A DNA stretch of 42,685 bases. Source: an uncultured Oscillospiraceae bacterium (GTDB lineage Bacteria > Bacillota > Clostridia > Oscillospirales > Oscillospiraceae). The stretch lies in assembly GCA_934591845.1 (NCBI GenBank), contig CAKTPO010000018.1:1-42685 (forward strand), written 5' to 3'. The first letter of the stretch is position 1; each line of letters starts with the position of its first letter. The notes under the pieces are model-generated. The model was not told the DNA's origin, ran no database searches, and was given only the letters and a program-made list of their open reading frames with translations. A program made the translations under genes and the position numbers. Positions 24,814 through 41,792 of this stretch are shown here, one piece after another.

Positions 24814-24840
24814 ATTACCGTCACCGCCTTAATCTCGTTG

Positions 24841-24882
24841 TAAAAAACAGGCGGGAGAGCAACATATTGTGTGCCCTCCCGC
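24841..24882 (-). terminator. Intra-operon attenuator between livJ and livH
   Basis: On the minus strand a 10-bp stem with one mismatch (24873-24882 with 24851-24860) is followed by a run of six T. Partial termination here would favour livJ over the membrane genes, as is common for binding-protein operons. Confidence 0.75.
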
Positions 24883-24893
24883 TTTTTCAAGCC

Positions 24894-26096: not shown

Positions 26097-26138
26097 ACTG
26101 TACATCTCCTTTATTTTTTTGTTATCCTACGTTCTCAC

Positions 26139-26203
26139 ATTACAATATGTCAACTTGTAATGTATCATCCACTACATCATAACACGCATTTACATTTTGT
26201 CAA
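26139..26203 (-). promoter_or_regulatory. livJ promoter with two regulon operator copies
   Basis: On the minus strand TTGACA (26198-26203), 16 bases and TATGAT (26176-26181). One operator copy, TTTACATTTTGTCAA (26189-26203), covers the -35 box; a second, ATTACAATATGTCAA (26139-26153), lies about 15-30 bases past the start of transcription. The second copy sits inside a larger inverted repeat, ACATTACAA-N9-TTGTAATGT (26137-26163). Its TTGACA could also act as the -35 of a second promoter. Confidence 0.65.
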
Positions 26204-26266
26204 GATGTCATGCAATATTCTATAAAAAGCACAATTTCTTAAAGCGAATTTTGTTTGTTCTGCCAG

Positions 26267-27139
26267 TCAGCAAAGATTTTTCTGTTTTTCTTTCCGCACC
26301 TGTTCCAGCATGGTAAGCAGTCCGGCAAGTACCACCAGAGCCGCTCCCAGTACAGAAGTGGGTTTGATGGGCTGTCTCAGAATAATCAGGCCGAACAGCA
26401 TGGAAAACAGGATTCCGGAATAATTGAATATACTCACCTCTGATGCCTTTGCCATGGTATAGGAGTAGGTAAGTGCCAGCTGACCGCCTAAGGCAAATAC
26501 ACCGATCAGCAGCAGCATGACGAGATCTGCCGCCGAGGGAAACACAAAATTGCGGAGCATGAAAACAGCCGTAACAACGGTGGAGAAAAAGGAAAAGAAG
26601 AATACCGTTACGCAGGGTTCCTCCCGGCCTTTCAAGGCACCCACTGTTGTATAGGCGATCCCGGAAAAGAGTGCGGACAGGAATGCAATCAGCATCGTAT
26701 ACCCGCCGGAGCTGAACGTGGGGTTCGACACCGTTACAGCACCTGCCATTGCCAGCAGCAGCGCCAGGATCTGCCGCCCGTTGACCTTTTCTCCCAGAAA
26801 CGCCACCGCCAGCAGCGTTACCAGGAAGGGCGAGAGTTTATTCATCACCGCCACATCTCCCTGGGCTCCATGGGCACTTGCGTAGAACAGGCACACCATT
26901 CCCAAATATCCGGCCACGGAGCGCAGCAACAGCAGCTTGCGGTTGCCCGGTTTCCCGAATGGACTCTGTTTAAGTCGGCGTATCTCTATAAGTGCCACAA
27001 AAGACGTCAGCAGGTTCCGGAAAAACAGTTGTTCAAACAGTGGGATCCTGTCCGCACTCCGGGCGACGACCACTTGCATTGCCGCAAAAGAGGCAGCAGA
27101 CAGCAGCATCAGCAAGGAAGCTTGTGTACGTTTTGACAT
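26267..27139 (-). CDS. EamA/DMT-family transporter
   Basis: A 290-residue protein with ten hydrophobic segments in two homologous halves, the EamA (drug/metabolite transporter) build. The conserved features include the start ASFAAMQVVVARSADRIP, the LLRSVAGYLGMVCLFYA stretch and the ALAVVLAG-like end (AALVVLAGLLTMLEQV). Members export or import amino acids, nucleobases and metabolites. It lies 10 bases after the CyuA-like gene and is the last gene of the DUF4432-led operon, so it may export a pathway product. The role is inferred from position only. Confidence 0.83.
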   Translation of the reverse strand: MSKRTQASLLMLLSAASFAAMQVVVARSADRIPLFEQLFFRNLLTSFVALIEIRRLKQSPFGKPGNRKLLLLRSVAGYLGMVCLFYASAHGAQGDVAVMNKLSPFLVTLLAVAFLGEKVNGRQILALLLAMAGAVTVSNPTFSSGGYTMLIAFLSALFSGIAYTTVGALKGREEPCVTVFFFSFFSTVVTAVFMLRNFVFPSAADLVMLLLIGVFALGGQLALTYSYTMAKASEVSIFNYSGILFSMLFGLIILRQPIKPTSVLGAALVVLAGLLTMLEQVRKEKQKNLC

Positions 27140-27149
27140 AGGCCCCGCC

Positions 27150-28466
27150 TTACTCCGAGATCATAATGCGAATGATCTCCTCATCCGTCTGCAGCATTCC
27201 CTTGCTGGCGATTTCCCCTACGGCACTGATGGTTTCCTCCAGTCCCTCCTTCACGATCCCGTCCCCCGGTTGGAAGGAGCGCTGTTTCTTTGCCAGTGAA
27301 TATCCCACCAGTGCTGCTTCCACGGCAGAAGCTATTTTCGCCGCACAGGAAGGCTTTGCACCGTCACACAGGATGCCGGAAACATTTGCCAAGGTATTGC
27401 TGACGGTCAATTCGATCAGTTCATGGGAAGCACCGTCCAGCCAGGCAATGGCCGCACCGCTTCCTGCAGCAGCGCTGACGGCACCGCAGTAGGCGGAAAG
27501 CCGACCGACCTTCGATTTTTGATGGATCGCCACCAGGTTGCTGATAGCCAGGGCACGAATCAGCCGTTCCCGGGAAGCACCCAGGTGCTGTGCGTAGACA
27601 ATGACCGGCATAGATACCGTGATCCCCTGGTTTCCGGAGCCGGAATTGATGACGACCGGCAAAACAGAGCCACTCATACGTGCATCTGATCCGGCTGCGG
27701 CGGCAGCCCTCGCCTGAGTCCAGACATTTCCGTCAGCGGTTTCCAGCAGGGTCTTTCCCACATTTGCGCCATAGGTATGAAGCAGGCCTTCATTGGAAAT
27801 GGCAGTGTTGTACCGGATCTGCCGCTCTATTATATTCTCTATTTTGGAAATTTCAACATGTTCCGCAAAGGATAGAATCCCTTCCACCGACAGAAAATCA
27901 TAGTCGGTCTGCGGTTCCTCCGGGATCGCTTCCGCACAGGCTTTTTTGAAAAGTGCAACGCCGTTCCGCTCCAAGCGAATGAGGTTTGTATGCGTGTCCC
28001 GAATTTCAGCCAGGGCGCTGTCGTTACCACTGAAAGCTTCGACGATGATATGCAGCTTGGCATCGGTTTTCAGGTGTTCCACCGTGCAATAGCCCGGCTG
28101 TTCCAAATACTGTTCCGCCAAGCTGCGGTCCTCCGGAGAAATATCGGACAAAACCTCCAGCTCTTTACCGGCATCTCCGCCAATTGCTCCAAAGATTGCA
28201 GCTGCGGCGATGCCCTTCCGGCCATTGGTTCCCGGGACGATCACGCCCTTTACGTTTTTAATGATATTGCCGCTGGCATGCACCCGCAGCTTCTGGGGCA
28301 GGCATCCCAGGACTTCTCTGGCCTTTGCCGCACAAAACGCCAATGCAATGGGTTCCGTGCATCCCTGTGCGGGAACCAGTTCCTCCCGAAGCAGCGAAAT
28401 ATATGCCTGTTCTGTTTTTTCTGTTTGCAATGCGCTCGCTCTCCGTTCATTTGAGGATGCCGGCAT
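27150..28466 (-). CDS. CyuA/UPF0597-family L-cysteine desulfidase-like protein
   Basis: The protein is about 438 residues from the ATG at 28466. The family marks are PAQGCTEPIALAFC near the N-terminus and GILCDGAKPSCAAK near the C-terminus, which hold the iron-sulfur cysteines of the serine-dehydratase-like fold. Known members split L-cysteine into pyruvate, ammonia and sulfide; related lyases act on other beta-substituted amino acids. The frame is open to 28544, overlapping the UroD-like gene by almost 100 bases. The ATG at 28466 gives a 20-base overlap but has a poor ribosome site, so the start is uncertain. Translation may be coupled to the gene upstream. Confidence 0.82.
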   Translation of the reverse strand: MPASSNERRASALQTEKTEQAYISLLREELVPAQGCTEPIALAFCAAKAREVLGCLPQKLRVHASGNIIKNVKGVIVPGTNGRKGIAAAAIFGAIGGDAGKELEVLSDISPEDRSLAEQYLEQPGYCTVEHLKTDAKLHIIVEAFSGNDSALAEIRDTHTNLIRLERNGVALFKKACAEAIPEEPQTDYDFLSVEGILSFAEHVEISKIENIIERQIRYNTAISNEGLLHTYGANVGKTLLETADGNVWTQARAAAAAGSDARMSGSVLPVVINSGSGNQGITVSMPVIVYAQHLGASRERLIRALAISNLVAIHQKSKVGRLSAYCGAVSAAAGSGAAIAWLDGASHELIELTVSNTLANVSGILCDGAKPSCAAKIASAVEAALVGYSLAKKQRSFQPGDGIVKEGLEETISAVGEIASKGMLQTDEEIIRIMISE

Positions 28467-29511
28467 TATACTCGTCCGCAGCAACTCGCAGCTGATGCAC
28501 CGCATCCTCTGTAATATCCAGCGGCAGAGAACAGCCGGGTGCAAAAATCAGGCGGTGATCCTCCGACTCCACAGCCGCTCTTGCGGCCCGTCTGCGAAAA
28601 CGTTCCAGGATTTCTCCTGTTGTTCCGTAAAAATCATGGAACTGGTCGGTGCCGGTGACCAGAACCTTGTCCGTGATCTGCCGCACCTTTGCTACTGTGG
28701 AGCGTTCTTCTTCCGGAATTTGCAGTGGGGTGTTTTCCCAGCTGATGGCCTGCACATTGTAGGTCTTGAATTGGTTCCAGAAGAAATGGCGGGCACCGTG
28801 GACATGAATCATGTTAAACCAGGTCCGATCCTTGATCCGGTCAAGCAGCATTTCATCATAGGGGCGTGCAAAGCGTTCAAACTCCGCCTCCGAGAGAATA
28901 TCGGAATTGCTGTAGCGCTGGGCAAAGAAGAATCCGTCGGCTCCCGCATCGATATAAGCATCCACAAGCTGGAGTTCTGTCTGAACCAACGCCTGAAGCA
29001 TCCGGTCCACCGCTTCCGGGTGGTTTTCATAGTACCAGCGGGCCTTGTCAATGCCGCCTACAAATTCCGGAATGCAGTGCATAGGGGTAAAAATGGTGGG
29101 AAGGATGGGTACCGTTCCCTTGTAGTGTTCTGCCAGTGCCCGGACATTGGCGATTTCCCGCTGATAGACCCGATTCCTGGACACATCCAGCACAGGAAAT
29201 GCTTCCATCTGACGGGGCGATTGGATCAAATAGTTGTGGATATGGAAAACCCGTTTTGCTTTCAGATCTTCCAGGGACATTTCTCCGGAAAAATACTCAA
29301 TATCAGAGCCATGGGCTTCCTGATTGTAAACACCGTTGGGCATGATTTTAATAAAGTCCCAACGGCTGCGGTCGGTCATGCGGATGATTTCAGAGGAAAA
29401 CACTTCCGCACGATCCCGGTCAGCACCCGGGCTGTGCAGCCAGCCGCTGGCACCGATTTCTGATACCGGTTTTCCTTCCACCATTTGGCGAAGCCGTTCG
29501 GTAGCTGTCAT
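28447..29511 (-). CDS. UroD-superfamily methyltransferase-like protein
   Basis: The protein has 354 residues and the TIM-barrel pattern of the uroporphyrinogen decarboxylase/MtaA superfamily: MTATERLRQMVEGKPV start, the ADGFFFAQ strand (191-198), MIHVHGA (234-240) and the end LIFAPGCSLP (321-330). No heme genes are nearby, so a methyltransferase-type role is more likely than heme synthesis. MtaA/MtbA relatives hold zinc with His-x-Cys and a later Cys. Here the first pair is His236-x-His238, while Cys327 is kept. No corrinoid protein gene is in the window. AAGGAGGG precedes the ATG. Confidence 0.78.
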   Translation of the reverse strand: MTATERLRQMVEGKPVSEIGASGWLHSPGADRDRAEVFSSEIIRMTDRSRWDFIKIMPNGVYNQEAHGSDIEYFSGEMSLEDLKAKRVFHIHNYLIQSPRQMEAFPVLDVSRNRVYQREIANVRALAEHYKGTVPILPTIFTPMHCIPEFVGGIDKARWYYENHPEAVDRMLQALVQTELQLVDAYIDAGADGFFFAQRYSNSDILSEAEFERFARPYDEMLLDRIKDRTWFNMIHVHGARHFFWNQFKTYNVQAISWENTPLQIPEEERSTVAKVRQITDKVLVTGTDQFHDFYGTTGEILERFRRRAARAAVESEDHRLIFAPGCSLPLDITEDAVHQLRVAADEYNAGILK

Positions 29512-29525
29512 AATGGCCCTCCTTT

Positions 29526-30329
29526 TCAGTCCTGCTTCCGTTCCCGCTCACGGAAAGAATAATCCGGATTCAGCGTGATCCCACGGCCGCCGCTGACCTC
29601 CACCGACGTACCCGTCATAAAGGTGGAGCCGTTGCCGCACAGGAACACGATGGGCTTGGCCACTTCTTCCACACGTCCAGGGCGCTGTAACAGCGTTCCG
29701 TGGCAAATATGCTTCATGTTTTCGTCCGTGGTATGCTCCGTATTAAATTCGGTCATGGTATAGCCCGGCAGGACTGTATTGACCCGAACACCATAGGCGG
29801 CATACTCACCGGCCATGGTAACAGAGAGCATGTTGGTTGCAGCTTTCATAGGGCCATACAGTGTTGCCGCACCGGTGGTGGGGCAGCGTCCGCCCAGGGA
29901 ACTGATGTTCACAATGGAGCCGCCTCCGTTGTTCTTCATGGAGCGGAACGCAGCCTGGCAGCCAAACATTGCGGCCTTGAAGCAGATGGCAAAAACACGT
30001 TCCATCAGTGCTTCGGAGTATTCTTCCTCCTCCGGTTTCTTGGTGATTTGGGCGCCGACATTATTGACCCATGCACTGATGGGACCCAATTCCTTTACAA
30101 CATGGTCACCAAAAGCATAGGCCTGCTCCTCCACGGTCATATCCACGACTTCCGCATACACCGTTCCAAGGGGCTTTAATTCCGCCTCTGCCTCCCGAAG
30201 ATGATTTTCACGGGAGGAGCAGATGGCAACCTTTGCGCCTTCCTTCAAAAGTTCCTTGGCCGTTGCCAAACCAATGCCCTTGCTGGCACCTGTTACTACA
30301 ACGACCTTTCCATTTAATCCAAGATCCAT
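29526..30329 (-). CDS. Short-chain dehydrogenase/reductase (SDR)
   Basis: A 267-residue classical SDR. The cofactor loop is TGASKGIG (14-21), the structural NNxG motif reads NNVG where most have NNAG, and the catalytic residues are Ser in NISSLGG and YGPMK (YxxxK). Such enzymes oxidise or reduce an alcohol/ketone with NAD(P). The C-terminus is longer than usual and very basic/acidic (RERERKQD). The ATG has GAGGT upstream, 14 bases of spacing separate it from the UroD-like gene, and it shares the DUF4432-led operon. The substrate is unknown. Confidence 0.88.
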   Translation of the reverse strand: MDLGLNGKVVVVTGASKGIGLATAKELLKEGAKVAICSSRENHLREAEAELKPLGTVYAEVVDMTVEEQAYAFGDHVVKELGPISAWVNNVGAQITKKPEEEEYSEALMERVFAICFKAAMFGCQAAFRSMKNNGGGSIVNISSLGGRCPTTGAATLYGPMKAATNMLSVTMAGEYAAYGVRVNTVLPGYTMTEFNTEHTTDENMKHICHGTLLQRPGRVEEVAKPIVFLCGNGSTFMTGTSVEVSGGRGITLNPDYSFRERERKQD

Positions 30330-30364
30330 AAATTAACCTCCAAATTCATCAGATTATGATAAGA

Positions 30365-31531
30365 TCAAAGCCTGTGCTGCAATTCGGTATAGCAGTCCAG
30401 CGCATTCCGATAACAGAATTGCTCCGCCACTTCCCGTGCCCGTGCCTTGGTCAAATATCCGTCTTGTGTAAGCCCTTCTAATAGCCGAGCCAGCTGTTTC
30501 CGGAAATGATGATGGGCAAACCACGAAACCTCCGGAAACATCACGCCGTCGCTTCCATACATGATTTTGTTAAGGGGTGCTCGTTCCAGCAGGGCGGCCA
30601 TCCGCTCCACACCTTTCAGGCTGCACAGATAAAATGTGCCTGAAAAATCACTGTAGACATTAGAGAACTGGGCGGTCAGATAGCTGGTATTCTCCTCATG
30701 GGGGTGTCCGCCATGAAGCAGGACGATCCGGACACGGTTGAATACCCGTTTGTCCCATAGAAAATCCACCATGTGGATGGGGTCAAGGGTTTTGAAATCG
30801 ATCCAGCTGCCGCCCCCGGCTCCAGTATGGAACTGTACCGGAAGGTCTTTCTCCGCCGCAATATCCATACTTTCCAGCAGCATAAAGCTGCGCAGACATT
30901 TTTCATCTCCTGGCCCGGCCTGGCCTCCCCGGATGCGCTCATAGGCTTTTTCCGCCTCCGATTTTTCCGGTAGCCAGATGTCCAGTCCACCGTTGTATGC
31001 CATGCAGGATTTCAGGCCAATTGCCTGTTCTTCCGAAATCTGATTGCACAGCTCCTCTTTATAGCGGCTGCACAACATTGAAAAATTCTGGTCCTGAGAA
31101 AGCAAGTCATCTAAAATCCGATCCAGCCGCACAATATTCGCCCGTTTCTCCGGTGGAATGGAGGCATTGAACTCATTTTTTTCTTTCTCGGAGTATGCAG
31201 GCCCGCCGATGGGGCTTCCGATTTCCAGGCAGTGCATGGCTACATTGCAATCAGAAAGCAGCCAGGTATAATACTTCTGGGGGTCTTCCTGATAACGCCG
31301 AAAACGCTCCTGCTCGATCTGCTCCATAGAGGCGTTTTCGTCCATCTCAAATTTTTTCCGCAGTGCCTCCATGACCATTCCGTAGAGGATCGTCTGGCGG
31401 CCAAAGGCCTCCTGCCCGGGGCCCTGGATATATCCTCCCCCAAGGTTTCCCCACTGAGGTGCTCTATTCGGATGCACCCGGTGCACATGGGTGTCGATCA
31501 ATGGTATCTGATATAATTCCTGTTCAAGCAT
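30365..31531 (-). CDS. Amidohydrolase-family metal-dependent hydrolase
   Basis: The protein is 388 residues. The metal-binding HxH is T-H15-V-H17 right at the N-terminus, followed by VQFHTGAG and VLLHGGHPHEE (metal histidines) and YGSDG (the catalytic aspartate), the order seen in amidohydrolase family 2 and in FluG-type N-terminal domains. These enzymes hydrolyse or decarboxylate small organic acids and amides. It lies 11 bases after the DUF4432 gene, and GTAGGAGG precedes the ATG. Its position suggests ring or amide opening in the same pathway as the SDR, but this is an inference. Confidence 0.83.
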   Translation of the reverse strand: MLEQELYQIPLIDTHVHRVHPNRAPQWGNLGGGYIQGPGQEAFGRQTILYGMVMEALRKKFEMDENASMEQIEQERFRRYQEDPQKYYTWLLSDCNVAMHCLEIGSPIGGPAYSEKEKNEFNASIPPEKRANIVRLDRILDDLLSQDQNFSMLCSRYKEELCNQISEEQAIGLKSCMAYNGGLDIWLPEKSEAEKAYERIRGGQAGPGDEKCLRSFMLLESMDIAAEKDLPVQFHTGAGGGSWIDFKTLDPIHMVDFLWDKRVFNRVRIVLLHGGHPHEENTSYLTAQFSNVYSDFSGTFYLCSLKGVERMAALLERAPLNKIMYGSDGVMFPEVSWFAHHHFRKQLARLLEGLTQDGYLTKARAREVAEQFCYRNALDCYTELQHRL

Positions 31532-31542
31532 CCGTTGTCCTC

Positions 31543-32601
31543 CTACAGGCAGGTTTTGTATCTCTGTTTTGCCTGTTCCAGTTCCTCTGCGCCCTGGTGG
31601 ATATGAAGTTCAAAATAAAACTCTTTCCGCTCCATGGGCTTTAAGAATACCAGGTCCTTGTTTTCCCGGGCCTTATCCCGGCCCCAGGTCCGGCAGTTGC
31701 AGGGTTCCAGCCCCACCACATAATTCCGCTTTTGCAGGCACTTCCAGAGATTGAACTTGTTCAGATTGTCTGCGGCAAATCGAATGGTAGCACCCAGGCC
31801 CAGGGATTCATTCAGAATGGAAGCATAGGCAAATCCCTGGTCATCTGCCAAAACCGTGTGATTGTAGGCCCGGGCCTTGTATGTATCATCCGGGGCTGAG
31901 ATCACGCCGATTTGTGGCAGAGACTCCTCTGCCCAGGAGGAGGTCGGGAAGCAGGCATCGGCGGTCAGATACAGCTTTGCTTGCTCATCCAGCAGGGGAT
32001 AACCAAAATTCATATGGTATATCAGCATCAAGGGAGATTCCTGAAAACCCATATTTTCCACAGTATCCTTTACATAGACCACATTTTCACCCATTTTCAC
32101 CGTGATCTCCCTGGTCAGGCACAGGTTTTCACCGTAGGGCCGGACCTGGCGGGTTTTGGAGGTGTATTGCAGGTAATACCCATCTTCCTTCCAGAAGCTG
32201 CGGCAATTTACCTCCTCCGACGGTGTATTGGAGATCTCTCCGTGAAGCATCAGCTTTTCGCCGTCATCCACACAGGGTAGACCGGCAGTCGTAAGGCCGC
32301 AGGTGGCCATCATGCCGCCGCCAAAATTTCGGTCCCACTCAAAATCCCCTTTGTGCCAGAATTCCGGTCCGGAGATCCCCACACCGGACAGCCAGCATAA
32401 TGACCGTCCCCGGAATGTCAGCGACGAAATATCAGAGGCCCGATCCGGAAGGATCGTCATATACAGCCCGTCTCCGTTCCATAGGTCTACAGCGTGAACG
32501 CCCCGCTGTCTGCCGTCCTGTAAAACATACCGTTTGATTCCGGCCAACTGCTCCATACGGCCGACCCGTTCATATGCCGCCTGTCGTGTCAAGTGCTTCA
32601 T
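31543..32601 (-). CDS. DUF4432/aldose 1-epimerase-like protein
   Basis: The 352-residue protein belongs to the galactose-mutarotase-like superfamily, DUF4432 type: DLWNGDGLYMTILPDRASDISSL near the N-terminus in two pieces, then GISGPEFWHKGDFEW, MLIYHMNFGYPLLDE and GLEPCNCRTWGRDKA. Such proteins bind sugars or sugar acids, and some interconvert anomers. Finding it first in the operon argues that the substrate contains or yields a sugar-like ring, in line with the KDG enzymes in the same proposed regulon. The ATG at 32601 is preceded by GACGAGG. Confidence 0.8.
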   Translation of the reverse strand: MKHLTRQAAYERVGRMEQLAGIKRYVLQDGRQRGVHAVDLWNGDGLYMTILPDRASDISSLTFRGRSLCWLSGVGISGPEFWHKGDFEWDRNFGGGMMATCGLTTAGLPCVDDGEKLMLHGEISNTPSEEVNCRSFWKEDGYYLQYTSKTRQVRPYGENLCLTREITVKMGENVVYVKDTVENMGFQESPLMLIYHMNFGYPLLDEQAKLYLTADACFPTSSWAEESLPQIGVISAPDDTYKARAYNHTVLADDQGFAYASILNESLGLGATIRFAADNLNKFNLWKCLQKRNYVVGLEPCNCRTWGRDKARENKDLVFLKPMERKEFYFELHIHQGAEELEQAKQRYKTCL

Positions 32602-32643
32602 GCAACTACCATCCTCGTCATTATGTTGTTTAATACTAACATA

Positions 32644-32697
32644 TAATCATTATGTAATTTATGACTTCATTATAGAGTCGACATTACATAATGTCAA
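32644..32697 (-). promoter_or_regulatory. Promoter of the DUF4432-led operon with two operator copies
   Basis: On the minus strand TTGACA (32692-32697), 17 bases and a perfect TATAAT (32669-32674). Operator copy ATTACATAATGTCAA (32683-32697) covers the -35 box. A weaker copy, TAATCATTATGTAAT (32644-32658, opposite strand), lies at the transcription start. The 11-bp arms CATTATGTAAT (32648-32658) and ATTACATAATG (32683-32693) form a perfect inverted repeat around the -10 box. Confidence 0.75.
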
Positions 32698-32711
32698 TAT
32701 ATCATATTCTA

Positions 32712-32756
32712 CAAAAAGGAACATCCCGGTTTGTTGAAATTAACAAACCGGGATGT
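32712..32756 (-). terminator. Terminator of the GntR/UTRA gene
   Basis: A perfect 15-bp stem, ACATCCCGGTTTGTT (32721-32735) with AACAAACCGGGATGT (32742-32756), is followed on the minus strand by TCCTTTTTG. It ends the regulator gene before the DUF4432 operon promoter. Confidence 0.92.
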
Positions 32757-32797
32757 AATATGCTGTTTGTTTTCTGTCAGACCTGAACAGTGCTTGC

Positions 32798-33547
32798 TTA
32801 AACCTGATAGGCCAGATACACCTTGTCTCCACGGTACCTGGATATGGACCAGCACAGCGGGGTTCCGTCCTCGCTCTGGAGTAAATCCGCAATATACAGA
32901 AGAGAGGCCCGTGTACGGTCAATTCCCAACAGTTCAATGTCGTTTTTACTGGCCAGAACCGCCTCAACCTTGACTTTTCCGGAGGAAACCGGCGATTTTG
33001 TACAGCGGTTCAGCACGTCAATAAGACTGAATTTCGTAAAGTCCTGGTCTTTAACGGATTCCCAAAGGTTTTCCGGCATATAGGTCGCATTGTAAACGAT
33101 GGAGCAGTTGCCAATCATCCATTTGCGTTTGAGATAGATAAGCCGTTCACCGGCAGACAGGTTCAGCCGCTGGTTGATTTCTCCGATTTTATCTACAAGG
33201 CAGAAATCCAGCACCTGAACGGTGCAGTCCCGCCCGGTTTGCTCCATATACTTCTGGAATTGCTCAATGCAGATATTCAGCCCCAATTCAATTTTCGGCT
33301 CCGCCACAAAGGTACCGCTGCGTTTTTTCCGTATCAGAATACCCTCGGCCACCAGTTCGTTTAATGCCAGACGAACGGTGGGGCGGCTCAGCTGCAAATA
33401 TTCGCAGAACTCCGTTTCCGCCGGAAGCTTGTCTCCCAACTTCAAATTCCCACTGGCCAGCTCGTTCAAAATCATCCGTTTTACCTGATAGTAAAGCGGA
33501 ATCGGAATGTCCTTATTCAGTCTAAAGCGTTCTTCCCGTAAATCCAC
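32798..33547 (-). CDS. GntR/HutC-family regulator with UTRA domain
   Basis: The 249-residue protein has an N-terminal GntR winged helix (about 12-78; PLYYQVKRMILNELASGNL, then LPAETEFCEYLQLSRPTVRLAL) and a C-terminal UTRA ligand-binding domain (about 95-245). HutC-type proteins are usually repressors released by a pathway metabolite, often a sugar phosphate or amino acid derivative. The start is GTG at 33547 with AAGGGGG upstream. It is transcribed alone, between the ABC/peptidase operon and the DUF4432 operon, and its own promoter holds the most symmetric copy of the proposed operator, so autoregulation is likely. Confidence 0.92.
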   Translation of the reverse strand: MDLREERFRLNKDIPIPLYYQVKRMILNELASGNLKLGDKLPAETEFCEYLQLSRPTVRLALNELVAEGILIRKKRSGTFVAEPKIELGLNICIEQFQKYMEQTGRDCTVQVLDFCLVDKIGEINQRLNLSAGERLIYLKRKWMIGNCSIVYNATYMPENLWESVKDQDFTKFSLIDVLNRCTKSPVSSGKVKVEAVLASKNDIELLGIDRTRASLLYIADLLQSEDGTPLCWSISRYRGDKVYLAYQV

Positions 33548-33606
33548 AGTAATCCCCCTTCTGTTTTTTGTTATGAATAGGTTCCCTATACTTAGGATAT
33601 ATCATT

Positions 33607-33621
33607 TTGACAAAATGTCAA
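33607..33621. promoter_or_regulatory. Regulon operator at the GntR/UTRA gene
   Basis: TTGACA-AAA-TGTCAA is a perfect inverted repeat (apart from the centre) about 60 bases before the regulator start. It overlaps a plausible -35 (TTGTCA on the minus strand) that stands 17 bases from TATAGG. Confidence 0.7.
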
Positions 33622-33725
33622 CCAGAATTTGCGTTTTAATCCGTACTTTTCTTGTTTATGTCCCATTTACGGTTCTCCGGCTACGGTTGTATCCATTGTG
33701 TGCCGCAAATGGGCACAGCAAACAC

Positions 33726-33758
33726 TGACCTGCGTGCTTCCATAAGACACGCAGGTCA
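33726..33758 (-). terminator. Terminator of the ABC/peptidase operon
   Basis: A perfect 11-bp stem, TGACCTGCGTG (33726-33736) with CACGCAGGTCA (33748-33758), lies 13 bases past the M24 peptidase stop. The following tract is GTGTTTGCTG, so it is T-poor. Confidence 0.7.
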
Positions 33759-33771
33759 GACCCGATACATT

Positions 33772-34845: not shown

Positions 34846-34859
34846 AAGCAATGCTCCCC

Positions 34860-36167
34860 CTAATGGCTATTGGACAAAGCTCCGCTTCCGGCGTTCTTTT
34901 TTTTGATTTGAATGGCGGTGTTCATAGCCAGCGACACAAAAATGATTCCGTAAGCCACAAAGACCCGGAAGAATTCACCGACCTGGGCCTCTGCAAAGAG
35001 GGCCGTACCGGCCATGGGAGAAATCGCCAGCAAGGAATGGAACAGCAGCACACCAATGATGGCCTGGGCGTTGGTGGCCCTGGAAATGGAGGCGCCGCCT
35101 ACCAGGATCGCCGCCACAGCCAGCAGACCCACCTGCTCATGGTGGGAATATACATTCATGGTGCCAATGTTTTGCAGACTGATGATTTGGCCCCAGGCCG
35201 CAAAAATCGTAGAGATGATGATCGCAATGATACGAGTCCGGTCAACATCGATACCGGCAGCTGCCGCAACATCCTGATTCTGTCCCACCGTGCGCATATC
35301 CTGCCCCAGTTTGGTCTTGAACAGCCAGGTGTTGAACAGACACAGCAGGCCAATGGTAATGAGCGTGGAGACGGAAATATCGCAGAAGTCCAGGGTAAAG
35401 GAGAAATTGGGATCCATATAATACCGTGCGATCCCAAATGCGCACAGTACCATCAACACAATGCGGCACGCCATGCTCCGGCTCTTGATTTGCTTTTTCA
35501 GAATATCCCGTGTTACTTTCACCAGACACCAGACGATCACAATGGCGCAAACTGCCACAAAGAACTTTCCGGCCGTTGTCATCCACAGACTGTCCAGAGA
35601 ATACTTGAACGTACCGGTAAAATCCAGGGTGCTGACAATGCCGACACCGGTATTGATCATCATTTCCTTTTTGGAAAAGGGGATGATCGTACCAACCAGG
35701 CACAGAAGCACGAATTGATAGATGCCGTTTGCCAAATAGCCCAGGATCTGGGATGTGATCATCTCATTGCCCTTTGTCTTGTTCAGAATCTTGCCGGTGA
35801 CCCAGCCAAACAGAACCGCAAACGGCACACTTAGCACAATGGCACCGAGGAAGCTGGAAAATCCGGTCATATTCCAGCCCACCACCATGATAATTGCGAC
35901 CTGGCCTGCCATAGCCCCGATGACAATGCCAAAGTTCAGACCGATACCGGCAATGACCGGCACGATCAGGGACAGTACCAGAAATGCGTTACGCAAAAAT
36001 CGGGAAATGATTTCCTGCAGGAAGAAACTGGGACGAACACCGGAAACAGAATAACCGGCCACCGTCAATACCAGCATGATCACGACCACAATATTATTTT
36101 TCAGGTATTCCCCGGTCCGGCCTGTCAGAGAAGCCCCACGTTCTTTGTTTCCTTCGATACGCTTCAT
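34860..36167 (-). CDS. ABC transporter permease, RbsC/BmpA-system type (first)
   Basis: A 435-residue permease of the BPD_transp_2 family with about ten hydrophobic segments. The long form, with an N-terminal cytoplasmic extension and a large insert between segments, is the type seen next to BMP-like systems. The motif RTVGQNQDVAAAAGIDVDRTR is the coupling helix (about 277-297). It lies 4 bases after the second permease gene, so the pair forms a heteromeric channel. It imports an unknown solute with the ATPase and DUF3798 lipoprotein of the same operon. Confidence 0.86.
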   Translation of the reverse strand: MKRIEGNKERGASLTGRTGEYLKNNIVVVIMLVLTVAGYSVSGVRPSFFLQEIISRFLRNAFLVLSLIVPVIAGIGLNFGIVIGAMAGQVAIIMVVGWNMTGFSSFLGAIVLSVPFAVLFGWVTGKILNKTKGNEMITSQILGYLANGIYQFVLLCLVGTIIPFSKKEMMINTGVGIVSTLDFTGTFKYSLDSLWMTTAGKFFVAVCAIVIVWCLVKVTRDILKKQIKSRSMACRIVLMVLCAFGIARYYMDPNFSFTLDFCDISVSTLITIGLLCLFNTWLFKTKLGQDMRTVGQNQDVAAAAGIDVDRTRIIAIIISTIFAAWGQIISLQNIGTMNVYSHHEQVGLLAVAAILVGGASISRATNAQAIIGVLLFHSLLAISPMAGTALFAEAQVGEFFRVFVAYGIIFVSLAMNTAIQIKKKNAGSGALSNSH

Positions 36168-36171
36168 CCTC

Positions 36172-37212
36172 TCAGCCCTCCTTTTTGATGGTGGTCAGAG
36201 CATAGACAATGATGCCGTTGCTGACAACAACACGGACGATCTCTGCCAGATTGCTCTGAGGCGCAACTGCGTTTGCCACGGGCATGGACAGGGCCAGCAC
36301 GCCATTAAACAGCAGAGTGCCGATCAGGACATGGCTGATCCCGGCCTTTTTGGTCGTCGCACCGCCAATCAGAATACCCGCTACGGCAGAGAAGCCCATC
36401 ATCAGCGGGGATTCGTACAGCTGCATGTAGCCATAGCTCTGGGAATAGAACAGGATGCCCACTGCTCCCAGAATCGTAGACAGCACAGTTCCAAGGATCC
36501 TGGTACGGTTCACGGGAATACCGATGCTGCTGGCAAATGCGGGATTTTCACCGGCAACGGTCATCATGGTGCCGATCCTGGTATTCAGAAACAGCTGAAG
36601 CAGGCCGCAAATGGCCAGACACACCAGAATGTATCCCAGGGGCAGTCCAAACTCCCCAAATTTTATCAGCCAGAAGTAATCCAGAATGTGGCCAAATGTT
36701 TTGCTCAAATCAATAGCCTGACGGATACCGCTGCCCATCGTCATAGACAGTGCAGGGTTGGTGATCGGCAGGAACAACCATACAATACACATCAGAGAAA
36801 TCAAAGAGAAGCCAACATAGGTCGCGACCATCATTTCGGAACCCTTCAATTTGTTCAGCAGCAAACCGTAAAGGATCCCCACAACGATTGCAAAGGGAAT
36901 GGACAGCAAAATCGCAACGATCAGACTGGTCACGCCGGTAAAGCCCCACTCAAGAGACAGCACACCACCCAGCAGACCGCATACGATGCCCAAAGGCAAG
37001 CCAAAATTCAAACCAACTCCGGAACGTACCGCTGGAACCATGGCCAGAACCAGAATGCAGTTCATCCCCCAGCGAACACAAACGTCACTCATGGTATCCG
37101 CAAAGGATAGCCCCAGAACATAGGTGATCACAACCAGGAGCAGGAAGAACCCTCCAACGATCAGTCTGGCACTGCCGATTTTTTTATAAATCAAGGTCAT
37201 TTTTTCTTTCAT
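36172..37212 (-). CDS. ABC transporter permease, RbsC/BmpA-system type (second)
   Basis: This is the partner permease, 346 residues, with about nine hydrophobic segments. The coupling motif TVAGENPAFASSIGIPVNRTR is at about residues 216-236. Its ATG overlaps the ATPase stop codon by ATGA, so translation is coupled. With its neighbour it forms the membrane channel of the DUF3798 importer. Confidence 0.87.
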   Translation of the reverse strand: MKEKMTLIYKKIGSARLIVGGFFLLLVVITYVLGLSFADTMSDVCVRWGMNCILVLAMVPAVRSGVGLNFGLPLGIVCGLLGGVLSLEWGFTGVTSLIVAILLSIPFAIVVGILYGLLLNKLKGSEMMVATYVGFSLISLMCIVWLFLPITNPALSMTMGSGIRQAIDLSKTFGHILDYFWLIKFGEFGLPLGYILVCLAICGLLQLFLNTRIGTMMTVAGENPAFASSIGIPVNRTRILGTVLSTILGAVGILFYSQSYGYMQLYESPLMMGFSAVAGILIGGATTKKAGISHVLIGTLLFNGVLALSMPVANAVAPQSNLAEIVRVVVSNGIIVYALTTIKKEG

Positions 37213-38828
37213 TGCGGTTCCTCCGTTCTTGCGGCTTTGCTGTATACGCCGGACATCATCAGGCCAAAATCGCTATCCGGTGCAGTGGGCGGTAAAACGC
37301 CTTCGACCTTTCCTTTGTTCACGATTGCGATGCGGTCGCACACACTGCGCAGCTCTGCCAATTCAGAGGAAGTAATGATAATGGTAACATTGTTTTCCCG
37401 ATTCACCTTGGTCAGATAATCAAAGACCAATTTCTTTGCGCCAATATCAATGCCCCGTGTAGGCTCAGACACCAGCAAAATTCGAGGATTCAGTGCCAAT
37501 GCTCTGGCAAGACAGACTTTTTGTTGATTGCCGCCGCTAAGTCGGCGGGTATTCTGTGCAATGGATGTACATTTGATATTCAGTTCTTCTACAAATCGTT
37601 CCGCAACGGCACTGGCCTTCTTTTCGGAAACCAATTCCACACATGCCACCTTATTGAGGAATGCGTGTTGGGCGACAATACCACTGATGGTGATGTTGCT
37701 CTCGATGGAGCTGTCCAGCAACAGGCCCCTGCCACGGCGGTCTTCCGAAACGAATGCGCCGCCCTGGGCAAACAGTTCATGGGGGCTGGGCTTGGATATT
37801 TCTTTCCCGTAAATCTCCAGATAGCCTCTGGACGGGTAGATACCGGCAATACCGTTGGCTACACCAATTTTTCCCTGACCTGCCAGTCCGGCAATACCCA
37901 GAATCTCCCCTTCGTGTACCTCCAAGTCAATGCCCCTGCATTCCTCGCCCGGCATATCCACCTGGAAATCCTTCAATTTCAAAACCGCAGGCATTTTTTC
38001 CCAGACATAGGGCGTTTCACGGTTATACACCTGCTCCACAGAGCGGCCAACCATCATCTGCGCCAGTGACACAGCATCCGTTTCCCGAACCGGCTTGGTG
38101 GCAACCACTTCACCATCCCGCAAAATGGTAACCCGATCCGCAACCTGTACGACCTCATCCAGCCGGTGGGTGATAAAAATAATGGCAATTCCGCTTTCTG
38201 CCAGTTTCTTCATAATATTCAGCAGAATAGCGGCTTCACTCTCCGTTAATACCGCCGTAGGCTCATCGAACACCAGCAGCTGGACGTTTTTCTTGTCGAT
38301 CTCCCGGGCAATTTCGACAAACTGTTTATAGGCAACAGGCAAATGCTCCACCGTTACCATTGTATCCAGGTCCATACCGATGCGGTCCAGTGCTACTCTG
38401 GAATCCTGGTTCATCCTGTTCCGATCCAGAAGCTCGATTCGCTCACCAAAGACTTTGGAAAGCACACTTTTCTTCCTGGGTTCACAGTTGAGCTTGATGT
38501 TCTCCGCAATGGTGAAACCGGGGATCAGCATGAATTCCTGGTGGACCATGCCGATTCCAAGCTCCATGGCATGTCGGGGAGAGGCCACTTCCGTGGCCTT
38601 CCCTTTCCATAGGATCTCTCCGCCGTAGCCGCCTGTATTTCTGATCACAGGCATTCCAAAGAGAATATTCATCAGTGTAGACTTGCCCGCACCGTTCTCT
38701 CCCAGAAGCGCATAGATTTCACCGGGACGGACATCGAAACTGACATTTTTCAATACCGTATTCTCGGCAAATCTTTTCGATATGCCCCGCATCTCCAACA
38801 AGCTGTCGGCAGTTGATAGTTCTCTCAC
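37209..38828 (-). CDS. ABC transporter ATPase with two nucleotide-binding domains
   Basis: A 539-residue double ATPase of the RbsA/YufO kind. The first half has Walker A GENGAGKST and Walker B LLVFDEP, with a degenerate signature. The second half has a degenerate Walker A (GLAGQGKIG) and a good signature, LSGGNQQKV. Exactly this asymmetry marks sugar and nucleoside type importers with RbsC-like permeases. The start is GTG at 38828 with AAAGGAAG upstream. It follows the DUF3798 gene after about 50 bases. Confidence 0.92.
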   Translation of the reverse strand: MRELSTADSLLEMRGISKRFAENTVLKNVSFDVRPGEIYALLGENGAGKSTLMNILFGMPVIRNTGGYGGEILWKGKATEVASPRHAMELGIGMVHQEFMLIPGFTIAENIKLNCEPRKKSVLSKVFGERIELLDRNRMNQDSRVALDRIGMDLDTMVTVEHLPVAYKQFVEIAREIDKKNVQLLVFDEPTAVLTESEAAILLNIMKKLAESGIAIIFITHRLDEVVQVADRVTILRDGEVVATKPVRETDAVSLAQMMVGRSVEQVYNRETPYVWEKMPAVLKLKDFQVDMPGEECRGIDLEVHEGEILGIAGLAGQGKIGVANGIAGIYPSRGYLEIYGKEISKPSPHELFAQGGAFVSEDRRGRGLLLDSSIESNITISGIVAQHAFLNKVACVELVSEKKASAVAERFVEELNIKCTSIAQNTRRLSGGNQQKVCLARALALNPRILLVSEPTRGIDIGAKKLVFDYLTKVNRENNVTIIITSSELAELRSVCDRIAIVNKGKVEGVLPPTAPDSDFGLMMSGVYSKAARTEEPQ

Positions 38829-38879
38829 AAAAACACTTCCTTTGTACTCTTTCGCTCAGCCACGGCAGAGTGTTGCTGT

Positions 38880-40073
38880 TTACAGGTCTGCCCAGCCAGG
38901 CAGGATCAGCGCATAGTTGTCGAACTTCAAGCCTGTTTCGGGGTTATCGTAAAGTTCAAAATCCACGTCTTCGGGGCTAGACTCCATAATGTCTGCGTAG
39001 ATGCTGCGCAGAGCATCCATGTCAACCTTGCCGTTGGTCTTTCCTTCAATATAAGCGTTTGCATAAGCCACACTGGTCTTCATCAGATTGATGCCAACAG
39101 GGGCAACACGGCAGGAAAACCGTCCGGAGTTGCCGCTTTCTGCCAGGAAGTTTCTGACTTCATCCATCATCCAATCCACATCCGCCTGCTTGTCCTCAGG
39201 TACTTCAATACCGAAGGGTGTGGCATACTGGAAGGGGGAAGAATTGCAGGGGTTCGGGTAGATGCCGCCATTCTCCAGCACCGCTTTCGCAACAGCAGGC
39301 ATGGACAGGGGGTTGGTGTCGTAAAATGCAGTTTTGGGGCCATACTTTTCGATCTGTTTCGGCACATCTTCCAGGCAGAACTGCTGGGTACCGGCCGTTC
39401 CGGCATCGGACTGAGGGTCGGGCATGGTCACACGAACAAATTTGATGCCCAGCTTCTCGCTGGTCTCCTCCATCATCCGGCCCTCATAGTTGATTTTATC
39501 GATGGCCTGGTGACGGGGGAAGGAGTAGTAAACGAAGGTTTCTGCCCCCAATTCGTAGGCACGCTGGGCCAGACTCTGGCCGTTCTTATTGGTATTGTTG
39601 TCAATAATAATGTCTGCAGCAGCTGCGGCAACCTGAGGGTCTTCTCCAATGCCGGAAGCAATGTACAAAACATCCGGGCGTTTTTCCTTCGCCTTGGCGA
39701 TTGCCGCAGATGCGCCGGAAATTGCTTCAATGAATACAACGGCCTTGATTTCAGGATCGCTGACCAGGCTCATCAGATTGGATATGACCGTCTCCTGTTC
39801 TTTCATAAACTGGACGGGATATGTCTGGATCACCACACGGTCTTCACCGTAGCGTTTTACCATGGCCTCCGCTGTACGGTACAGTTCCTCGTTCAGAGCA
39901 ACAGTGGCAGTGATAATGCCGATTTTGCCATTGGGGGTCACCGTCTTCGCTGCTTCCTCAAGTTCCTGTGCGGCCTGGGAAGTGGTTTCACCGGCAGACT
40001 GATTGGTGCTGCCGCAGGCAACCAGGGTGAACATCATGGCGATCGCCATGATCAGGGAAAGAATGCGTTTCAT
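38880..40073 (-). CDS. DUF3798 substrate-binding lipoprotein
   Basis: The 397-residue protein has a lipoprotein signal (MKRILSLIMAIAMMFTLVAC, Cys20 acylated) and then a periplasmic-binding-protein-like region: KIGIITATVALNEELY, VISNLMSLVSDPEIKAV, DVLYIASGIGEDPQ and ETFVYYSFPRHQAIDKINYEGR split over strands. This pattern is that of DUF3798, a clostridial family seen with ABC genes and of unknown ligand. AAAGGAGAC precedes the ATG at 40073; a longer frame from 40112 is rejected. Position between a dipeptidase gene and ABC genes indicates that it is the capture subunit. Confidence 0.85.
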   Translation of the reverse strand: MKRILSLIMAIAMMFTLVACGSTNQSAGETTSQAAQELEEAAKTVTPNGKIGIITATVALNEELYRTAEAMVKRYGEDRVVIQTYPVQFMKEQETVISNLMSLVSDPEIKAVVFIEAISGASAAIAKAKEKRPDVLYIASGIGEDPQVAAAAADIIIDNNTNKNGQSLAQRAYELGAETFVYYSFPRHQAIDKINYEGRMMEETSEKLGIKFVRVTMPDPQSDAGTAGTQQFCLEDVPKQIEKYGPKTAFYDTNPLSMPAVAKAVLENGGIYPNPCNSSPFQYATPFGIEVPEDKQADVDWMMDEVRNFLAESGNSGRFSCRVAPVGINLMKTSVAYANAYIEGKTNGKVDMDALRSIYADIMESSPEDVDFELYDNPETGLKFDNYALILPGWADL

Positions 40074-40099
40074 TTTTTTGTCTCCTTTTTCTTTTATTA

Positions 40100-40135
40100 A
40101 AAAGCGGATCATTGTGCCGTATCCGCTCCTTTACA
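40100..40135 (-). terminator. Attenuator between the dipeptidase and DUF3798 genes
   Basis: On the minus strand AGCGGAT pairs with ATCCGCT across an 11-base loop and TTTTT follows. Partial termination between the first gene and the binding protein is plausible, or the hairpin may protect a processed 3' transcript. Confidence 0.6.
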
Positions 40136-40151
40136 AATTTGTTTGCTGTAC

Positions 40152-41576
40152 CTATGCCTGATACAGCGCTTCGTCTGTCTCGATCAGGGCCAGCGCATAT
40201 ACCTTCACCGCATTGAGTAGGTTCTCGATTTTCATGCACTCATCCGGCTGATGGCCGCTGCCCCTTCCGATACCGCCCGGTTGGACCTCTCCCTGGATAT
40301 GGGGGCCATACGCCAGTGCGTTCGGAATTTTCCGGGCATAAGTACCGCCGCCCATGGTATAGGGAACATGATCATCCCCCAGCACCCGCTGCGCCAGACG
40401 AACCAGCCTACTGACAATGGGATTGTCCAGCGGCATATACGCCGGGGGATTCACATCCAGTTCCGTGACCGTGAATCCGGCCTTCCAGAAAAACTGCCGC
40501 AGCTGTTCTGCCATTGCTTCTTCCGGCTGGGTCACGGCATAGCGGATATTATAGTCCACCGTCAACACGCCCTCCTTCAGCCGCAGCTTGCTGCACACAT
40601 GGGTCGTCTTACCGGAGAAGGCATCCTCATATGCAATGCCAAGGCCATGTCCGTAATAGTCGGCGCAGCTTTCGCCGATCATCTCCAAGGCTGTTTTCAC
40701 CTGACCGGTCAGCAGGTGGTGTTCTGTCAGGAATGTTACCAACAGGCCAATGGCATTTACTGTCTGCTCCGGAAACGCCGCATGTCCGCCCTGGCCCACT
40801 GCCTGAATTTCCGTACCGGATGCAGTCTCCTGCGCCGTGAATCTGGTGTCATTGCCAATGGCTTCCCGCAGGGTTCCCAGGCTCACGTTTTTGAGAACCG
40901 CAACTGCCGTATTGGGAACGATATTGATGGCATGCCCCGCTTCCAGCGCCACCAGATTTCCTGTTTCCAGCTTTTTCTCCGCATACAGCTCAATAATTCC
41001 TTTTTCTCCGTAACAGGCAGGGAACGAAGCATCCGGTACGATGGAGAAATCCGGGAACCCGCATTTCTTTCCATAGTAAACCACATCTTCCATACCATGT
41101 TCTTCCGCAGCTCCACAATATAGCAGCACATCACTTTTCAGCGGGTATTTCTGCTCTTGAAGGAACCGCATGGCAAACAGAGAAGATACAATGGCACCTT
41201 TGTTATCCAGCGACCCCCGACCGTAAATAAATCCGTCCTTTACGCACGCATCATAGGGATCGACCGTCCAGTCATCCCCTTCCGGCACCACATCTGCATG
41301 GCCAAAGATGCCAATGGTTTTCCTGCCATCCAGCCCTTTCATCCGAGCCGTAGTACAATAATATTCGTGGATTTGTGCCGGAAATCCGTAATTCTCCCCA
41401 ACAGTCTTAAAATGTTCCAGGATTCTCCCGCAACACTCCTTTAACGGGTACTCTGCACCATGATCCGGCTGCGCAACGCTTTTGATGTTTACGGCAGCAA
41501 TTACCTGCTCCACCAATTCTTCCCGGTGAGCAGAGATCCATTGGTCTAATTTCAGTTCCAATTCTTTATCCTTCAT
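40152..41576 (-). CDS. M20-family (PepV/Sapep-like) metallo-dipeptidase
   Basis: A 474-residue enzyme with the two-metal site of the M20 family: His93 and Asp95 in IFGHADVV, the bridging Asp124 in RGSLDNKG, the catalytic pair Glu158-Glu159 in AAEEHG, Asp182 in VPDASFP and a C-terminal His in SGHQPDE. PepV-type enzymes cut dipeptides and related amide-linked compounds in the cytoplasm. The GGGTYARKIPNALAYGP stretch is typical of the type. It opens the operon for the DUF3798 importer, so the imported compound may have an amide bond. CTGGAGG precedes the ATG. Confidence 0.91.
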   Translation of the reverse strand: MKDKELELKLDQWISAHREELVEQVIAAVNIKSVAQPDHGAEYPLKECCGRILEHFKTVGENYGFPAQIHEYYCTTARMKGLDGRKTIGIFGHADVVPEGDDWTVDPYDACVKDGFIYGRGSLDNKGAIVSSLFAMRFLQEQKYPLKSDVLLYCGAAEEHGMEDVVYYGKKCGFPDFSIVPDASFPACYGEKGIIELYAEKKLETGNLVALEAGHAINIVPNTAVAVLKNVSLGTLREAIGNDTRFTAQETASGTEIQAVGQGGHAAFPEQTVNAIGLLVTFLTEHHLLTGQVKTALEMIGESCADYYGHGLGIAYEDAFSGKTTHVCSKLRLKEGVLTVDYNIRYAVTQPEEAMAEQLRQFFWKAGFTVTELDVNPPAYMPLDNPIVSRLVRLAQRVLGDDHVPYTMGGGTYARKIPNALAYGPHIQGEVQPGGIGRGSGHQPDECMKIENLLNAVKVYALALIETDEALYQA

Positions 41577-41624
41577 GAATATTCTTCCTCCAGGATCGTA
41601 TAAATATCTCTTATTTCGGCGATT

Positions 41625-41680
41625 ATGTCAATATGTAATGTGCATAATGAGATAATAGCAACAAAGTGACATATTGTCAA
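41625..41680 (-). promoter_or_regulatory. Promoter of the dipeptidase/ABC operon with two operator copies
   Basis: On the minus strand TTGACA (41675-41680), 17 bases and TATTAT (41652-41657). Operator copy GTGACATATTGTCAA (41666-41680) covers the -35, and a second copy, ATGTCAATATGTAAT (41625-41639), lies about 6-20 bases past the start of transcription. This is the same layout as at the DUF4432 and livJ promoters. Confidence 0.75.
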
Positions 41681-41792
41681 TATGGTTCTTTTTCTCAGAA
41701 AGCATTTCTATGTTGTTCACAATTCTTCGGGCTTCAAATTGTTGATTTTTACCATCAGGCCAAATATACAAAGGCTTACTTTGCGTGTTCAT
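41628..41792 (-). CDS. Possible 54-residue open frame or gene remnant
   Basis: A short frame starting MNTQSKPLYIWPDGKNQQFE runs across the promoter of the dipeptidase operon to a TGA at 41628. The first half looks protein-like; the second half overlaps the operators and is AT-rich. It has no good ribosome site. It may be the truncated start of a lost gene rather than an active one. The product is not recognised. Confidence 0.2.
   Translation of the reverse strand: MNTQSKPLYIWPDGKNQQFEARRIVNNIEMLSEKKNHIDNMSLCCYYLIMHITY

What the first reader, a model, noticed from the sequence alone, without database searches (positions are those of the whole stretch)
26139..41680. Shared 15-bp operator at four promoters suggests one 22-kb GntR/HutC regulon
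Seen directly: ATTACAATATGTCAA (26139), TTTACATTTTGTCAA (26189), ATTACATAATGTCAA (32683), TTGACAAAATGTCAA (33607), GTGACATATTGTCAA (41666), plus weaker copies at 32644 and 41625. They occur at the promoters of livJ, the DUF4432 operon, the GntR gene itself and the dipeptidase/ABC operon. In three of the four the layout is the same: one copy over the -35 box, one at or just past the start of transcription. The only local regulator in the region is the HutC-type protein at 32798. Caveat: TTGACA is also the -35 consensus, which inflates part of the match, but the symmetric half and the downstream copies are not explained by that.
Basis: partly seen in the sequence, partly recalled or inferred. 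Interest (0 to 1): 0.82.

Follow-up and report, generated by a model that had tools for sequence, protein, structure and literature searches.

The report
HutC-type regulon with unusual operators
A bacterium apparently related to gut Clostridia seems to control a 22-kb block of nutrient-uptake and breakdown genes with one GntR/HutC-type regulator, whose predicted DNA landing sites are arranged differently from the usual sites of that protein family.

Summary
All seven sequences lie where stated; five match TKACAWWWTGTMA exactly, against 0.49 per Mb in 100 related genomes. They cover the -35 box of four operons; three of the four have a second box just past the start.

One GntR regulon is well supported by comparison; binding is untested. 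In all five fetched loci with an ortholog (53-85% identity), a PWM from the window alone scores highest at promoters of the same genes, in three gene orders. The box pair occurs only at this cluster in four of the five genomes, not at all in the fifth, and in none of 784 others.

Refinements: the operator fits a 21-bp element of three pentamers at 8-bp pitch; the "weaker copies" are the same element with the other pair strong. Its conserved bases run AC-N5-GT, opposite to the HutC GT-N4-AC enriched beside 60 distant relatives, though three of those have near-matches to the outward form. Two of three NagR base-contact residues are replaced. The dipeptidase/ABC operon was found as a member only in the window. 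The substrate is unknown.

The parts
32798..33547 (-). gntR: GntR HTH + UTRA (HutC-type) regulator, 249 aa, predicted regulator of the region
   Evidence: Pfam PF00392 and PF07702 above cut-off; HutC NCBIfam TIGR02018 104 bits, below its 220 cut-off; nearest solved structure by profile NagR/YvoA
33608..33628 (-). operator at gntR promoter, ATTCT-GGT-TGACA-TTT-TGTCA, over the -35 (first pentamer not matching; a TGATA follows at +8)
32721..32756 (-). intrinsic-terminator-like hairpin between gntR and the DUF4432 operon
   Evidence: 15 pairs, T-rich tail; a similar inverted repeat is visible in the L014 sequence
32684..32704 (-). operator box 1 of the DUF4432 operon, TGATA-TAT-TGACA-TTA-TGTAA, over the -35
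26267..32601 (-). DUF4432 operon: DUF4432 (31543-32601), Amidohydro_2 (30365-31531), SDR (29526-30329), URO-D family (28447-29511), SDH_alpha (27150-28544), EamA (26267-27139)
   Evidence: Pfam; the first four genes lie in the same locus as gntR in 5 of 5 ortholog loci; that they form one transcript is inferred from spacing
26190..26210 (-). operator box 1 of livJ, TGACA-TCT-TGACA-AAA-TGTAA, over the -35
26140..26160 (-). operator box 2 of livJ, TTACA-AGT-TGACA-TAT-TGTAA, past the predicted start; a full three-pentamer element
19763..26105 (-). livJ operon: livJ (24894-26105), livH, livM, livG, livF, KHG/KDPG aldolase (20795-21442), KDG kinase-like (19763-20791)
41667..41687 (-). operator box 1 of the M20 dipeptidase operon, AACCA-TAT-TGACA-ATA-TGTCA, over the -35 (first pentamer not matching)
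33772..41576 (-). M20/ABC/M24 operon: M20 dipeptidase (40152-41576), DUF3798 (38880-40112), sugar-type ABC ATPase (37209-38828), two permeases (36172-37212, 34860-36167), M24 peptidase (33772-34851)
   Evidence: found as a boxed operon only in the window

Best explanation
The four operons form one local regulon under the HutC-type protein at 32798-33547. Shown by sequence and comparison: a common 21-bp element of up to three TKACA/TGTMA-like pentamers at 8-bp pitch overlies the -35 box of each operon (box 1); a second copy begins about 40 bp downstream of box 1, just past the predicted transcription start, in three of the four (box 2; 39-50 bp over all loci); related boxes stand at the promoters of the same genes in other genomes that carry this gntR. 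Inferred: the dimeric regulator binds the boxes when it has no ligand, covers the -35 and blocks the early transcribed region, and so represses the genes and itself. A compound imported by the livJHMGF transporter, or its breakdown product, probably binds the UTRA domain and releases it. The ligand is unknown; the enzymes suggest a sugar-like or sugar-acid substrate.
For: Sites present and above chance. Boxes overlap consensus -35 elements. PWM from the window's five strong sites: in 5 of 5 ortholog loci the best score in 12-21 kb lies at a promoter of gntR, DUF4432 or livJ. DUF4432, amidohydrolase, SDR and URO-D genes in 5 of 5 ortholog loci, in three gene orders. G001: 3 of 3 strict hits of the genome in the cluster. 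Box pair: 5 hits in 4 of 5 ortholog genomes, all in the cluster; 0 in the other 393 of 394 and the other 391 of 392 genomes. The 393 bear the same handles (G006-G398) as the sample, in which only G002 encodes the regulator at E up to 1e-40; the 391 were not searched for it. 8-bp pitch: box 2 T.ACA at -8 in 9 of 9 (partly how box 2 was recognised).GT.. at +8 in 6 of 9 (other offsets at most 2); box 1 T.A[CT]A at -8 in 6 of 14 (other offsets at most 1).
Against: No binding or expression data. The operator polarity differs from the HutC consensus (PMC4494728, sections 5 and 11). In L002 and L003 gntR has no own box; it lies behind the liv genes there. L001 gntR has a degenerate box, and L002/L003 livJ have AGACA boxes with no box 2. 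L004: weaker boxes, no strict or pair hit at its cluster, and its gntR seems frameshifted. Five strict hits lie outside the cluster in G002, G004 and G005. Best PWM scores in 66 control loci reach 17.9, 16.3 and 15.8, as high as or higher than the best of L002-L004 (15.8, 14.5, 15.0). The pair pattern was written after seeing the sites, so its hits in ortholog genomes are by construction; the absence elsewhere is not. The window's five hits shaped the strict pattern.
Confidence: 0.82

Rival explanations
1. The boxes are read by another regulator, for example a global nitrogen or carbon regulator encoded elsewhere; gntR is a neighbour under its control.
For: The pentamer geometry is not that of canonical HutC operators (PMC4494728). 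Targets include amino-acid-type transport and peptidases. Some strict hits lie elsewhere in G002, G004 and G005. Other regulators in the ortholog loci were not looked for.
Against: A global regulator should leave many sites: G001 has 3 strict hits in 2.8 Mb, all in the cluster, and the box pair is absent from 784 other genomes. gntR is the only regulator among the 20 window genes compared and is present in 5 of 5 loci (by construction, as it was the query) beside the boxed operons.
Confidence: 0.12
2. The match is mostly the -35 consensus TTGACA plus chance in AT-rich promoter DNA.
For: TTGACA is the -35 at all four promoters.
Against: The second half (G at +9 in 14 of 14 box 1 sites), the downstream box 2, the extra pentamers at 8-bp pitch and the rarity in other genomes are not explained.
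Confidence: 0.02
3. The regulon is real but smaller: only gntR, the DUF4432 operon and the liv operon; the M20/ABC/M24 operon carries look-alike boxes.
For: DUF3798 has no match at E up to 1e-20 in G001 and G002, and its four homologs in G003-G005 (35-52%) show no box in the 4.2-kb loci fetched; no M20, M24 or DUF3798 match in the five ortholog loci. M20 and M24 were not searched genome-wide.
Against: The M20 promoter carries both boxes at the usual spacing (41 bp), with a strict match and TTACA-N3-TGACA; a recent addition would still be a member here.
Confidence: 0.12

Closest known systems
NagR/YvoA of Bacillus subtilis (GntR/HutC)
   Same: Nearest solved structure by profile (4u0v, E 9.5e-34); same domain pair; the Arg48 equivalent (R55) is kept.
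   Different: NagR operators have half-sites separated by six nucleotides, bound side by side (PMC4333415, section 18). Here the Arg38 equivalent is T/N/I/V and the Gly69 equivalent is R/K/N in 16 of 16 rows of A1 (the matching of residue numbers is my reading of the alignment), and the boxes are AC-N5-GT arrays.
HutC-subfamily operators as compiled by Suvorova et al. 2015 (PMC4494728)
   Same: TGT/ACA half-sites; double sites; additional half-sites 7-12 nt from the site centre (abstract and sections 5, 11, 16, 17 seen).
   Different: Consensus there is NyGTMTAKACNy with GT and AC 4 nt apart in most; here the main pair is reversed in polarity.
NanR of Escherichia coli with its (GGTATA)3-repeat operator (PMC8012715; passages seen)
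   Different: Repeats of another sequence, and cooperativity through an N-terminal extension; an analogy only (its placing in the FadR subfamily is recalled).
Uncharacterised HutC-type regulators at 24-39% identity in genome-contig loci L005-L080
   Same: Same recognition-helix letters SRPTVR in the rows shown (selected by the search pattern) and TGTMA/TKACA half-sites near many of their promoters.
   Different: Their sites are mostly inward TGTMA..ACA; exact TKACANNNTGTMA occurs in none of the 74 such loci examined, though near-matches lie upstream of gntR in L053, L045 and L060.

Membership tests
GntR family, HutC subfamily (protein) | GntR winged HTH followed by a UTRA ligand-binding domain | tested here: met
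   PF00392 64.6 bits (cut-off 27), PF07702 77.1 bits (cut-off 23.8)
HutC itself (histidine utilisation repressor) | Score above the curated cut-off of TIGR02018 and hut genes nearby | tested here: not met
   104 bits against 220; no hut genes among the genes scanned
HutC-subfamily operator | Inward palindrome with GT and AC 4 nt apart (NyGTMTAKACNy) | tested here: not met
   No TGTNNNNACA in the four 150-bp window promoter stretches; present in 2 of the 15 promoter stretches examined (L014 gntR, L001 DUF4432)
NagR-type base recognition | Arg38, Arg48 and Gly69 equivalents (PMC4333415, passages) | tested here: not met
   Only the Arg48 equivalent kept (R55); T45 and R76 stand in the other two places, and no row of the 16 in A1 has the NagR residue at either of them
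Local GntR regulon | Boxes at the regulator's own promoter and at linked operons, conserved with the gene in other genomes | tested here: met
   own promoter boxed in window and L014, degenerate in L001 and L004, absent in L002 and L003 where gntR follows the liv genes
Local GntR regulon | Direct binding of the regulator and release by a ligand | not testable with these tools
   needs gel shift, footprint and ligand screen

The most novel reading that the evidence does not exclude
In this clade of HutC regulators the operator has changed polarity: the same TGTMA pentamer that distant relatives use as an inward GT-N4-AC pair is arranged as an 8-bp-pitched outward array. Composite sites (inward pair plus a further pentamer at 8 bp) in L001, L006, L009, L013, L014 and others (10 in 1.33 Mb of 80 loci) look like a bridge: an auxiliary half-site of the kind reported beside HutC operators became the main one and the inward partner was lost, together with two of the three NagR-type base contacts.
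Probability: 0.42. Interest if true: 0.62.

Novelty: new variant of a known kind. Interest (0 to 1): 0.45.

Why it matters
If true, it gives a concrete case in which a GntR-family regulator keeps its half-site letters but reverses their arrangement, a testable question about how winged-helix dimers evolve new operators. It also defines a regulon around a conserved but uncharacterised transport and catabolic cluster (liv transporter, DUF4432, amidohydrolase, SDR, URO-D) in Gemmiger, Enterocloster and Hungatella relatives, and so offers a route to its substrate through the inducer.

Tried and rejected
Whole-genome scan of the window's own assembly: not held. -35 consensus as the whole explanation: rejected by rarity in 100 relatives. 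Direct versus inverted reading of box 2: left open, because TGACA can serve either polarity; the two readings (three pentamers at 8-bp pitch, or overlapping TNACA-N3-TGWNA pairs) describe the same letters. Inward GT-N4-AC sites as the hidden true operator: looked for and absent from the four window promoters. Extra half-site at 8 bp beside distant inward sites: T.ACA at +8 in 5 of 96 orientations near gntR (next best offset 4) and 6 of 138 elsewhere (next best 3), so not convincing alone. PADLOC hit Csa3 to the regulator (E 0.00026): judged a generic winged-helix match. Literature searches for the regulon, for DUF4432 and for an everted-repeat GntR operator gave nothing on point in their listings (an open-access library only). 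Rows dropped: L021 (its match begins at base 1, so it has no upstream stretch), and the L004 livJ box 1 (TGACAAAATGATT) from the 14 box 1 sites; it is shown. Taxonomy of the window, substrate of the pathway and structure prediction were not pursued.

Full report
What was checked. With up to one mismatch TKACAWWWTGTMA has 6 matches in the window, against a mean of 0.33 in 100 shuffles. In the 100 other genomes of a family sample of G001 the strict pattern has 107 hits in 217.9 Mb (rounded sizes), 0.49 per Mb, so 0.021 would be expected in the window against 5 seen. The window's sites shaped the pattern, so the fairer figure is L014: 3 hits in 12.1 kb against 0.006 expected. Ten of the 100 control genomes have three or more hits, one of them seven, so counts alone do not make a regulon; clustering does. 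One of the 100 (G460) holds a 37% relative of the regulator and has no strict hit.

Anatomy. All four operons lie on the - strand. The strong site supplies the TTGACA of a sigma-70-like promoter at each: livJ (spacer 16), DUF4432 (17, 12 of 12), gntR (16) and M20 (17). gntR is separated from the DUF4432 promoter by a terminator-like hairpin at 32756-32721. A second box lies just past the predicted start of livJ, DUF4432 and M20, its first pentamer 42, 39 and 41 bp after the central TGACA of box 1. The 21-bp coordinates in the parts list were read back.

Comparison. The protein search gave 68 proteins at E up to 1e-20; 38 (P0001-P0038) are at least 52% identical and form the clade used here; 15 of them plus the window make alignment A1. 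The genome scan kept 80 of 160 confirmed loci, of which five (L001 Gemmiger formicilis, L002 Enterocloster sp., L003 Hungatella sp., L004 Hungatella hathewayi WAL-18680, L014 a Clostridiales MAG) belong to the clade at 53-85%. In all five, gntR lies with DUF4432, amidohydrolase, SDR and URO-D genes. The liv genes are present in four of five (L014 is cut within livG by the end of its contig; L001 ends before any), and there are three arrangements. A PWM from the window's five strong sites puts its best score in each of the five loci at one of these promoters. In the 66 control loci scanned (L015-L080) the best single scores reach 17.9, 16.3 and 15.8, so a single score above 15 is not unique; the placement and the pairing carry the weight.

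Genome-wide specificity. Strict hits: G001 3, all in the cluster; G002 2, one in the cluster; G003 none; G004 1 and G005 3, none in the cluster. The pair pattern TTGACAWWWWGTMWN{20,45}TWACAWRNTGANW: 2, 1, 1, 1 and 0 hits in G001-G005, all at the cluster, none in the other 393 of 394 genomes of the order of G001 and none in the other 391 of 392 of the order of G003. The 393 carry the same handles as the sample, where only G002 had the regulator at E up to 1e-40; the 391 were not searched for it. Among 400 genomes of the family of G001 only G001 and the 37% relative in G460 had it; of 17 of the genus of G003 only G003.

A better description of the operator. Aligning 14 box 1 and 9 box 2 sites from the window and five loci on the middle pentamer shows three positions at a fixed 8-bp pitch. 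In box 1 pentamers 2 and 3 are strong (GACA 14 of 14 by selection, G at +9 14 of 14) and pentamer 1 matches T.A[CT]A in 6 of 14, against at most 1 at any other offset. In box 2 pentamers 1 and 2 are strong (T.ACA 9 of 9, TGA 9 of 9, both partly how the boxes were recognised) and pentamer 3 has GT in 6 of 9, against at most 2 at other offsets. The sites are related by descent, so these are not independent counts. Because TGACA reads as TG one way and as CA the other, I cannot say whether the middle pentamer is used in direct or inverted orientation; in either reading adjacent conserved bases run AC-N5-GT.

Why that is unusual. HutC operators are described as NyGTMTAKACNy with GT and AC 4 nt apart in most, with exceptions (PMC4494728, sections 5 and 11). 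Near the gntR genes of 60 distant loci (24-37% identity, L020-L080 without L021) an inward TGTMA..ACA-like site occurs 50 times in 19.0 kb, against 59 times in 1.01 Mb elsewhere in the same loci, a 45-fold enrichment; the exact outward TKACANNNTGTMA occurs nowhere in that sequence. Against a clean switch: outward near-matches lie upstream of distant gntR genes in L053 (TTGGCATAATGTCAA, -154), L045 (AATACATATTGTAAA, -110) and L060 (TTGATATTTTGTCGA, -109). For the 14 loci at 33-39% (L005-L019 without L014) there was little enrichment of the inward site at gntR itself (1 near, 22 far); in L006, L009 and L013 a site TGTMATGACA plus a further pentamer lies at the head of the run of co-directional frames that leads to gntR. 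The loci were found with a pattern that includes SRPTVR, so the shared recognition helix is a selection effect. NagR contacts bases through Arg38, Arg48 and Gly69 (PMC4333415, passages and section 18); the window's clade keeps only the Arg48 equivalent. PMC4494728 section 17 reports extra half-sites 7-12 nt from the site centre in many GntR operators; composite sites in both the clade and its relatives fit the idea that such an auxiliary half-site became the main one. This last step is a hypothesis on few cases.

Mechanism. Box 1 over the -35 and box 2 just downstream of the start are usual places for a repressor (general knowledge). I take the protein to be a ligand-released repressor of its own gene and the linked operons. 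NanR shows that GntR-type dimers can sit on repeats less than half a turn apart (PMC8012715, passages). Repression, release by a ligand, and its identity are not shown.

Limits of the regulon. The core is gntR, the DUF4432 operon and the liv operon. The M20/DUF3798/ABC/M24 operon has both boxes in the window, but DUF3798 has no match in G001 and G002 and its four homologs in G003-G005 show no box in the 4.2-kb loci fetched; M20 and M24 were compared only within the five ortholog loci. So the 22-kb regulon is right for the window and about 8 kb of it is probably a local extension.

Verdict. Observation confirmed; interpretation supported at the level of comparative evidence; operator refined. 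An ordinary kind of regulon with an unusual operator geometry.

Noticed in passing
window 11170-11196 and 14732-14758: Two perfect CIRCE-type repeats (TTAGCACTC-N9-GAGTGCTAA) upstream of a Cpn60 gene and of hrcA; the name CIRCE is recalled, not from a call.
   Followed up: partly
window 16415-18373 (-): The frame antisense to dnaK matches Pfam PF10712 'NAD-specific glutamate dehydrogenase' at 517 bits, which looks like an antisense artefact.
   Followed up: no
L004:10001-10742: The gntR of Hungatella hathewayi WAL-18680 aligns in two pieces with a one-base frame offset, and its boxes are weak.
   Followed up: partly
L001:603, 4199 and 4253: Palindrome-like sites around TGACATG(A/G)TG(T/A)CA repeated in the Gemmiger formicilis locus, perhaps another regulator's sites.
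   Followed up: no
L034, L040, L043, L045, L046, L048, L049, L050, L075: Distant HutC genes carry two canonical inward sites 29-31 bp apart upstream of gntR, in several cases one of them where a -35 would lie.
   Followed up: partly
window 28447-29511: A URO-D family protein without a solved relative at E up to 0.01 is part of the conserved core next to DUF4432, SDR and an amidohydrolase; its role is unknown.
   Followed up: no
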